Assembly: GCA_018303505.1 (NCBI GenBank)
Contig: JAGVYA010000017.1
Coordinates: 1-38,535, forward strand
From: Candidatus Woesearchaeota archaeon
GTDB lineage: Archaea > Nanobdellota > Nanobdellia > Woesearchaeales > GW2011-AR4
Length of the DNA: 38,535 nt
Direction: 5' to 3'
The notes under the pieces: model-generated
Database searches by the model: none
Seen by the model: the letters and a program-made list of their open reading frames with translations, nothing else
Told to the model about the DNA's origin: nothing
Part shown: in pieces, positions 50-5,302 of the stretch
How the letters are laid out: every line of letters begins with the position of its first letter
How positions within the stretch are numbered: the stretch's first letter is position 1
Program-made: the position numbers and the translations under genes

Positions 50-433
50 TTACTTTGCAAAATTTTGCTCTATGAAAGAAGACATCTGCTTGTTATCAGC
101 TGCCTCATAAGCTTTTGCCGCCAGATTGTATTTTTTTGATTGAATGCACAGGACAGCAGCATTATTAAGCCTTTGCTTGTCTTTTGTTGGAATAAAGCAA
201 AGAGTTGCCAATTCCACTCTGCTTTCACTCAAAAATAAATCACCTAACTTCAACAGTTTTTCAGTGTCATGCATTTTTGCCATGATTTCAATCGCTTCCA
301 CAAACTTGCTTTGCTTGTACAGCTTTTCTGCGACATCGCTTAAAATTCTTTTTCTTGCTTCCTCATCAAGCATTGAAAGATTTACAGAATTAATGCCTTC
401 TTTCAGTATTTTTTCGACAATAGGATGCTCCAT
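50..433 (-). CDS. Small TPR-like helical repeat protein, unknown function
   Basis: A 127-residue soluble protein that I cannot assign to a named family. It is strongly helical and has alanine-rich helix pairs (LAAKAYEAADN, LYKQSKFVEAIEIMAKM) resembling degenerate tetratricopeptide repeats, so a scaffold or protein-binding role is the most that can be inferred. There is no signal peptide or membrane segment. The ATG start is supported by a TATA-like TTTAAATAAT about 25 bases upstream on the minus strand, suggesting a leaderless transcript. The stop lies close to the window edge, with no gene visible beyond it. The plus-strand ORF track entry over it is an antisense shadow in its first part. 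Confidence 0.65.
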   Translation of the reverse strand: MEHPIVEKILKEGINSVNLSMLDEEARKRILSDVAEKLYKQSKFVEAIEIMAKMHDTEKLLKLGDLFLSESRVELATLCFIPTKDKQRLNNAAVLCIQSKKYNLAAKAYEAADNKQMSSFIEQNFAK

Positions 434-479
434 AATTGTTTTATTAGAACTGGATTATTTAAAGGTTTTTGAAAAAATA

Positions 480-839
480 GGAAGCATATTTCAAATTATC
501 AAAGGTAATAAAGCATTATTTGGCGCTTATCCTGCTGGGCTAATTGATGGTGATGGGTGCATAAAGATTAAGAACAATATCAAAGATAGAGTTATTCCAC
601 AATGTGTTGTAAAAATTGCAAGTGGTCGTCCTTTAGAAGACGTTAAAAATTTGATAGAGTTTCACATAAACTATAAAGTGCATTTTGAATTTAAAAATAT
701 AGGTAAAGGAGTAAATACTTGTTTTTATGTATCAAAAAAGAATATTGAATTTTTTAAAAATTACATTTATCCAAACATGGTAATGCCTTATAAGCTAAGT
801 AAGCTTGAGCATTTTTTCCAATTAAGCAGAAAAACGGGC
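480..839 (+). pseudogene. LAGLIDADG homing endonuclease remnant
   Basis: The second half of the plus-strand ORF reads as one LAGLIDADG half-domain: YPAGLIDGDGCIKIK at about 528-572, then roughly 85 residues including VKNLIEFHINYKVHFEF, KKNIEFFKNYIYPN and a final LSKLEHFFQLSRK. One motif and about 100 residues is the size of a single homodimeric-type unit. No ATG, GTG or TTG occurs in frame between the antisense of the upstream gene and the middle of the domain. Downstream, the frame runs into tRNA-Arg on the other strand. I infer a 5'-truncated or start-less relic. Archaeal LAGLIDADG genes usually live in tRNA or rRNA introns, so lying against an intron-bearing tRNA fits that history, although here it is outside the intron and antisense. 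Confidence 0.6.
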
Positions 840-934
840 CTGCAGGGATTCGAACCCCGATTTCGGCTCTTATCATGAAATGACAAGATCAACCGGTCCG
901 AAGCCGATTGCACTGTCCATTATGCTACAGGCCC
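835..934 (-). tRNA. tRNA-Arg(UCG) with an intron in the variable region
   Basis: On the minus strand the acceptor GGGCCTG/CAGGCCC, D-stem GCAT/GTGC, anticodon stem ATCGG/CCGGT with loop CTTCGGA (anticodon TCG) and T-arm CGGGG-TTCGAAT-CCCTG all form. Between the anticodon stem and T-stem are about 32 bases instead of 5. They fold as a bulge-helix-bulge: 4-bp helix GGTT/AGCC, 3-base bulges GAT and GAA, and an 8-bp hairpin CTTGTCAT/ATGATAAG. Cutting at the usual bulge positions removes 26 bases (863-888) and leaves a 6-base variable loop, one longer than usual. A canonical 37/38 intron was considered but leaves a variable loop that is too short. The discriminator base is G. Confidence 0.85.
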
Positions 935-4735: not shown

Positions 4736-4785
4736 AACATTGACAATAAGATTTAAATACAATTCTTTAACTCGGATTATTCAAT

Positions 4786-4931
4786 GCGGGGGTAGCGAAG
4801 TCTGGCCAAACGCGCAGGACTTAAGACTCCATAATGGAACACCCATGCTAAATGGGATAAGTTATCCTGTTCCTTAGTGGATCCGAGATTTAGTCAAGCT
4901 AAACGGAAAGGTTCAAATCCCTTCCCCCGCA
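4786..4931 (+). tRNA. tRNA-Leu(UAA) with two introns
   Basis: Acceptor GCGGGGG/CCCCCGC, anticodon stem CAGGA/TCCTG, anticodon TAA (4822-4824), long class II variable arm, discriminator A. Intron 1 (4826-4863, 38 bases) lies at the canonical 37/38 site in a perfect bulge-helix-bulge: helix CTTA/TAAG, bulges AGA and TTA. A second bulge-helix-bulge lies between variable arm and T-loop: helix TCCG/CGGA, bulges AGA and AAG, hairpin TTTAG/CTAAA. Removing 22 bases (4888-4909) gives the T-arm GAGGG-TTCAAAT-CCCTT, which pairs fully. Without that splice the T-stem has an A-C mismatch and the variable arm is far too long. Confidence 0.9.
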
Positions 4932-5217: not shown

Positions 5218-5302
5218 GCCTCTGTAGCATAGCAGCTATTGCGTTGCCTTGGTATAGTGTATAAAAAGGCAAAGGTCGGGGGTGCAATTCCCCTCAGAGG
5301 CT
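5218..5302 (+). tRNA. tRNA-Thr(GGU) with a 12-nt intron and atypical D/T loops
   Basis: Acceptor GCCTCTG/CAGAGGC, anticodon stem TTGCC/GGCAA, T-stem GGGGG/CCCCT and discriminator T are all consistent with archaeal threonine tRNA. The anticodon is GGT (5251-5253). The gene is 85 bases long. Removing 12 bases after A37 (5255-5266) leaves a 7-base loop and exactly 73 bases, so a minimal canonical intron is likely, although the bulge-helix-bulge is poor. The D-loop has no GG pair, and the T-loop is TGCAATT rather than TTCRAAT. The D-loop GC and T-loop GC could replace the usual G18-U55 and G19-C56 contacts. A degenerate or pseudo-tRNA cannot be excluded. Confidence 0.75.

What the first reader, a model, noticed from the sequence alone, without database searches (positions are those of the whole stretch)
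4786..4931. tRNA-Leu(UAA) with a second intron in the T-stem
Two separate bulge-helix-bulge structures are visible, each with a 4-bp helix and two 3-base bulges: CTTA/TAAG at the anticodon, TCCG/CGGA at the T-arm. Removing 4888-4909 converts a T-stem with an A-C mismatch and an oversized variable arm into a perfect GAGGG/CCCTT T-stem. Multiple non-canonical tRNA introns are known mainly from Thermoproteales; in a DPANN-like genome this is unexpected.
Basis: partly seen in the sequence, partly recalled or inferred. Interest (0 to 1): 0.75.

Follow-up and report, generated by a model that had tools for sequence, protein, structure and literature searches.

The report
Two-intron leucine tRNA gene in Woesearchaeota
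This leucine tRNA gene from a tiny groundwater archaeon really is interrupted twice, once at the usual anticodon site and once inside the T-arm; its relatives interrupt the same gene up to four times, although they seem to carry only the simple form of the splicing enzyme that is thought unable to remove most such interruptions.

Summary
Window 4786-4931 is a tRNA-Leu(UAA) gene with a 38-nt intron at 37/38 (4826-4863) and a 22-nt intron at 51/52 in the T-stem (4888-4909). Only the doubly spliced sequence is recognised as tRNA-Leu(UAA). The decisive evidence is comparative: seven related genomes carry the same exons joined directly at 4887|4910, and two others carry a different intron at exactly that site.

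The T-arm motif is not a full bulge-helix-bulge but the relaxed HBh' form, because no outer helix forms. And the gene is one case of heavy tRNA disruption across the order: 43 tRNA-Leu(UAA) genes (this one and 42 relatives) hold 86 introns at nine sites, up to four per gene, and at least seven of 17 tRNA loci in this genome have non-canonical introns.

Nearly every order member with a hit encodes a single alpha-type splicing endonuclease, without the Crenarchaea-specific loop. A positive control in the same class shows that a beta subunit would have been seen. Reviews state that only (alpha-beta)2 and epsilon2 enzymes remove relaxed introns efficiently, so this clade looks like an exception. 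Splicing itself was not observed; no RNA data were available.

The parts
4786..4931 (+). tRNA-Leu(UAA) gene, two introns, no encoded CCA
   Evidence: Rfam RF00005 35.5 bits; ARAGORN Leu(taa) only after both introns are removed
4786..4825 (+). exon 1 (positions 1-37; anticodon TAA at 4822-4824)
   Evidence: spliced alignment to 42 other tRNA-Leu(UAA) loci
4826..4863 (+). intron 1, 38 nt, canonical site 37/38
   Evidence: core CTTA/TAAG, outer helix = anticodon stem; weak inner helix
4864..4887 (+). exon 2 (positions 38 to 51, with 15-nt variable arm)
4888..4909 (+). intron 2, 22 nt, T-stem site 51/52
   Evidence: flanks adjacent in 7 relatives; other introns at the same site in G025 and G046; single copy in the genome
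4910..4931 (+). exon 3 (positions 52-73)
4882..4885 (+). 5' strand of the T-arm core helix, TCCG (exon); pairs with 4904-4907
   Evidence: sequence; the unconstrained minimum-energy fold of the precursor forms it
4889..4903 (+). inner hairpin of intron 2, TTTAGT-CAA-GCTAAA
4904..4907 (+). 3' strand of the T-arm core helix, CGGA (intron); 3' cut after 4909
   Evidence: CGGAAA^GG shared with G025
4752..4759 (+). TTTAAATA, TATA/box A-like promoter element 27-34 nt upstream
   Evidence: similar elements upstream of most relatives' genes
862..889 (-). non-canonical intron (45/46, variable loop) in tRNA-Arg(UCG) 835-934(-), same window
   Evidence: core CGGT/GCCG, inner helix 9 bp, no outer helix; ARAGORN Arg(tcg) after removal

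Best explanation
The gene is a functional tRNA-Leu(UAA). Its transcript is spliced twice by the archaeal protein pathway: the splicing endonuclease cuts at both splice sites of each intron and RtcB joins the exons. Intron 1 is a canonical bulge-helix-bulge. Intron 2 uses the relaxed HBh' motif (exon TCCG with intron CGGA, bulge AG^A, inner hairpin, 3' cut AA^G) and must go before the T-arm can fold. The enzyme is most likely the single alpha-type endonuclease, as a homotetramer, which in this clade must tolerate substrates without an outer helix. Shown: gene structure, exact junctions by comparison, presence of endonuclease and RtcB genes, absence of a detectable second subunit. Inferred: splicing in the cell, the alpha4 assembly, its relaxed specificity, the order of events. 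The confidence given is for the two-intron reading; for alpha acting alone it is about 0.6-0.7.
For: Exact absence of the insert in seven relatives (flanks adjacent in G004, G005, G010, G012, G015, G017, G026). Different introns at the same site in G025 and G046. All 43 tRNA-Leu(UAA) loci are called Leu(taa) by ARAGORN once the predicted introns are removed, and leaving one in a multi-intron gene loses the call in 74 of 79 trials. Only one gene copy found in the genome, and TTA is 2.7% of codons in window genes. One PF01974 gene in the genome and one in nearly all of the 53 relatives with a hit; two adjacent genes in four class members of family f39, so the search can see a beta subunit. A PF02778 search down to E=10 shows no credible second gene. 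All 77 order sequences aligned lack the CSL insertion. RtcB present. Six other tRNAs of this genome have non-canonical introns, and an rtcB mRNA intron of the same relaxed type is found at one site in five genomes.
Against: No RNA data: splicing has not been seen. The genome is 88% complete, so a second tRNA-Leu(UAA) or a second endonuclease subunit could lie in the missing part, though nearly complete relatives agree. Known alpha4 enzymes are described as narrow, so the enzyme part rests on the absence of a second gene.
Confidence: 0.93

Rival explanations
1. There is no second intron: the tRNA simply has an oversized variable arm and an imperfect T-stem.
For: Class II tRNAs have long variable arms; Rfam scores the unspliced gene above threshold.
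Against: The arm would be 37 nt with an A-C mismatch in the T-stem; relatives have 15 nt and a paired T-stem with otherwise near-identical sequence; the insert is absent at exact boundaries; ARAGORN does not accept the form with the insert.
Confidence: 0.03
2. The gene is a decaying copy damaged by an insertion, with a working copy elsewhere.
For: The genome is a draft in 77 contigs, 88% complete.
Against: Only one copy found; all exon bases fit the relatives; the insert has a splice motif; UUA codons are common; introns in relatives' genes fall at repeated sites with preserved motifs.
Confidence: 0.03
3. The relaxed introns are cut by a heteromeric enzyme whose beta subunit is too divergent to detect, not by alpha alone.
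For: Every enzyme shown to cut relaxed motifs efficiently is (alpha-beta)2 or epsilon2; the closest solved alpha is that of Nanoarchaeum equitans, which has a beta partner.
Against: The same search finds two adjacent genes in four genomes of family f39; no credible second hit in genomes of 90-100% completeness.
Confidence: 0.25

Closest known systems
Non-canonical tRNA introns of Thermoproteales, e.g. tRNA-Pro(UGG) of Pyrobaculum islandicum with introns at 25/26, 37/38 and 56/57 (PMC4090602)
   Same: Short introns at sites other than 37/38, BHB or relaxed motifs, several introns per gene
   Different: Crenarchaea have (alpha-beta)2 endonucleases with a Crenarchaea-specific loop; the stated maximum is three introns per gene (PMC4033280, PMC8450103), whereas two relatives here have four
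ARMAN-2 (Micrarchaeota) tRNA introns and epsilon2 endonuclease (PMC12397907)
   Same: DPANN archaeon with relaxed introns at various tRNA positions
   Different: The three-unit enzyme with an ARMAN-specific loop is absent here; the gene encodes a plain alpha of about 200 aa
Multi-intron tRNAs of Atabeyarchaeia and Freyarchaeia (Asgard; PMC11291895)
   Same: Most tRNA genes with introns, often non-canonical, over half with several
   Different: Different phylum; the word endonuclease does not occur in that paper
Methanocaldococcus jannaschii alpha4 endonuclease (PDB 1A79)
   Same: Single alpha subunit, aligned without large insertions, no CSL
   Different: The M. jannaschii enzyme is listed as narrow (PMC6379350); this clade's genes carry relaxed introns

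Membership tests
Archaeal non-canonical tRNA intron | Insert at a site other than 37/38 whose removal restores a normal tRNA | tested here: met
Archaeal non-canonical tRNA intron | 4-bp core helix with 3-nt bulge at the splice sites (BHB or relaxed HBh'/hBH) | tested here: met
   TCCG/CGGA, AG^A, inner helix 6 bp; relaxed form, outer helix absent
Archaeal non-canonical tRNA intron | Absent at exact boundaries from homologues | tested here: met
   Seven relatives with adjacent flanks
Archaeal non-canonical tRNA intron | Excision in the cell | not testable with these tools
   No RNA data
Strict hBHBh' motif | Helices on both sides of the two bulges | tested here: not met
   No outer helix of more than 1 bp at 51/52 in G000, G025 or G046
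alpha4-type splicing endonuclease | One alpha gene with N- and C-terminal domains, no beta gene, no fusion | tested here: met
   PF02778 and PF01974 in one 201-aa protein; single gene
alpha4-type splicing endonuclease | Homotetramer in solution | not testable with these tools
   Needs purified protein
alpha4-type splicing endonuclease | Substrates limited to strict BHB | tested here: inconclusive
   Genomic substrates include relaxed introns; activity not measured
CSL/ASL-type broad-specificity endonuclease | Inserted loop next to the active site | tested here: not met
   77 order sequences lack the 10-residue CSL insertion; the short ASL was compared by alignment only

The most novel reading that the evidence does not exclude
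Woesearchaeales evolved broad-specificity RNA splicing with an alpha-only endonuclease that lacks the CSL/ASL loops. It removes up to four introns from one tRNA, including relaxed ones, and also an intron from the mRNA of RtcB, the ligase that completes splicing, so that ligase production depends on splicing.
Probability: 0.55. Interest if true: 0.75.

Novelty: new variant of a known kind. Interest (0 to 1): 0.62.

Why it matters
It is widely held that tRNA intron diversity co-evolved with endonuclease architecture: simple alpha4 enzymes for canonical introns, heteromeric or loop-bearing enzymes for relaxed ones. A large, poorly studied DPANN order appears to break that rule, and a single expressed protein plus short synthetic RNAs could test it. 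It also explains why standard finders see few tRNAs in this genome (14 Rfam hits over the cut-off), which makes it look more reduced than it is.

Tried and rejected
ARAGORN on the window finds no tRNA, and with -i it mis-places introns. A first spliced alignment merged the 30/31 and 37/38 introns into one at '35/36'; corrected. Idea that intron 2 is a transposed copy of another intron: no other match within 3 mismatches in the genome. Idea of a conserved outer helix for 51/52: TGGA/TTCA could pair in G000 with a 4-nt bulge, but not in G025 or G046, so dropped. Trans-splicing of relatives' genes was considered when their 5' ends looked missing, but the acceptor strand lies 39-40 nt upstream, as an 8/9 intron. 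Literature searches for Woesearchaeota tRNA introns found no report; only open-licence papers were searchable. Structure prediction was not run, since a monomer model would not decide specificity.

Full report
What is there. Window 4786-4931 holds a tRNA-Leu(UAA). Rfam finds it at 35.5 bits; ARAGORN does not. Intron 1 (4826-4863, 38 nt) is at 37/38 with core CTTA/TAAG and the anticodon stem as outer helix. Intron 2 (4888-4909, 22 nt) splits the T-stem at 51/52: core TCCG/CGGA, 5' bulge AG^A, hairpin TTTAGT-CAA-GCTAAA, 3' cut AA^G. The unconstrained fold of the precursor already forms this second hairpin. Only removal of both introns gives a sequence ARAGORN calls Leu(taa). A promoter-like TTTAAATA lies at 4752-4759.

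Is it more than chance. In 200,000 shuffles of the 22-nt insert none matched the observed core and inner helix together. Stronger is the comparison. A DNA search of 59 relatives gave alignments that break at query 102 and resume at 125, that is 4887|4910, and in seven genomes the two pieces are adjacent. A spliced alignment of 45 loci, 43 of them tRNA-Leu(UAA), shows near-identical exons and 86 introns at nine sites: 37/38 (36), 8/9 (19), 30/31 (14), 59/60 (8), 51/52 (3), and one or two cases each at 10/11, 21/22, 38/39 and 57/58. Two genes carry four introns: G001 (8/9, 30/31, 37/38, 59/60) and G025 (8/9, 21/22, 37/38, 51/52). All 43 are recognised as Leu(taa) once spliced; with one intron left in a multi-intron gene, recognition is lost in 74 of 79 trials. 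The papers read here give three introns as the maximum per archaeal tRNA gene.

Where it is. The nearest named endonuclease relatives (up to 88% identity) are groundwater Candidatus Woesearchaeota. The genome is 1.31 Mb, 88% complete, and only 14 Rfam tRNA hits pass the cut-off. Of 17 loci inspected at least seven have non-canonical introns: Leu(UAA) 51/52, Arg(UCG) 45/46 (in this window), Arg(CCU) 53/54, Ile(GAU) 45/46, Asn(GUU) and Arg(UCU) in the D-loop, Leu(CAA) 59/60. In each case removal leaves a tRNA that ARAGORN calls with the expected anticodon, Ile and Arg(UCU) keeping their anticodon-loop intron; for Leu(CAA) and Ile it was already callable before removal, so those two rest on the motif and the exon structure.

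Motif types. Sites 37/38, 59/60 and 8/9 can form a motif with an outer helix (at 37/38 not in the genes that also carry a 30/31 intron). Sites 51/52, 30/31, 21/22, 45/46, 53/54 and the D-loop sites have no outer helix beyond one base pair, so they are relaxed HBh'. Many relaxed introns end in AA.

The enzyme. This genome has one tRNA_int_endo gene, 201 aa, with N- and C-terminal domains. In 59 relatives the rule is one gene per genome, and so in 139 class members, except four genomes of family f39 that have two adjacent genes, the second detected only weakly; a few further double counts are fragments or weak hits. That is the positive control for detecting a beta subunit. A search with the N-terminal domain down to E=10 gives no credible second gene. 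All 77 order sequences aligned lack the CSL insertion of Sulfolobus and look as compact as M. jannaschii there. Reviews state that only (alpha-beta)2 and epsilon2 enzymes efficiently remove relaxed introns and that alpha4 is narrow (PMC6379350, PMC4090602). So either alpha alone does it here, or a partner escapes detection. I put the first at about 0.6-0.7. G025, one of the three 51/52 genomes, has no endonuclease hit at all in its 79%-complete assembly.

Independent support for relaxed splicing in this clade. rtcB of the same genome is interrupted by a 30-nt insert with an in-frame stop in the conserved GHWGYGFPIGG motif. Five genomes have an insert at the same place (30, 30, 33, 31 and 31 nt, so two shift the frame), all with GGGGAT^T...CCCTTG^AC, a 4-bp core, a 9-11-bp inner helix and no outer helix; the predicted junction restores GHWGYGFPIG each time. 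Ten relatives examined are uninterrupted there. A conserved ligase gene in such a state suggests the introns are spliced.

A related regularity. All 17 examined genes with an 8/9 intron have, upstream of the gene, a 7-nt element (GCCAGGC, ACCAGAC, GCCGGGC and others) complementary to their own D-loop, with matching changes, and in most a more distant TATA-like box. Genes without that intron, including the window's, lack a comparable element, apart from possible remnants in G009 and G048. The leader thus seems to supply the outer helix for the 8/9 intron. This is an inference from pairing only.

Verdict. The intron is real with high confidence. As a kind it is a known one, a non-canonical archaeal tRNA intron. 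The unusual part is its setting: a DPANN order with up to four introns per gene and an apparently alpha-only endonuclease. RNA evidence and enzyme assays are missing.

Noticed in passing
L148:1498-2970 (-), i.e. G000:C64 rtcB: 30-nt predicted relaxed BHB intron with an in-frame TGA inside rtcB (GHWG-Y-GFPIGG); same-site introns of 30-33 nt in G001, G003, G012 and G024, absent in ten relatives. The ligase's own mRNA would need splicing.
   Followed up: partly
5' leaders of tRNA-Leu(UAA) in L017-L019, L021, L023-L025, L027, L028, L036, L043, L089-L093, L100: Genes with an 8/9 intron carry a 7-nt leader element complementary to the D-loop, with co-varying bases; it probably forms the outer helix of the splice motif, so splicing would precede 5' trimming.
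   Followed up: partly
window 5218-5302 and L019, L021, L023, L025, L028, L031: tRNA-Thr(GGU) of this family has T-loop TGCAA instead of TTCGA together with D-loop AGC instead of GG(T); both elbow motifs changed, standard in order-level relatives L037 and L041.
   Followed up: partly
L019, L023, L028 (tRNA-Leu and neighbouring tRNA-Thr T-loops): T-loop introns of the two different tRNAs look alike in L023 (shared GCGAGCA...GCA-TGCAAG), suggesting movement of introns between tRNA genes.
   Followed up: partly
window 144-878 (+): ORF with a weak LAGLIDADG_3 match (E 4.8e-4, below cut-off) whose end overlaps the intron-bearing tRNA-Arg(UCG) on the other strand; possible homing endonuclease relic.
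   Followed up: no
G019:C18 and G025:C23 rtcB: rtcB domain match split within open frames of 992 and 1021 aa, probably inteins.
   Followed up: no
L015:1474-2079 (-): The endonuclease has a Lys/Glu-rich N-terminal tail of about 30 residues ahead of the conserved domains; it could replace the loops that other enzymes use.
   Followed up: no
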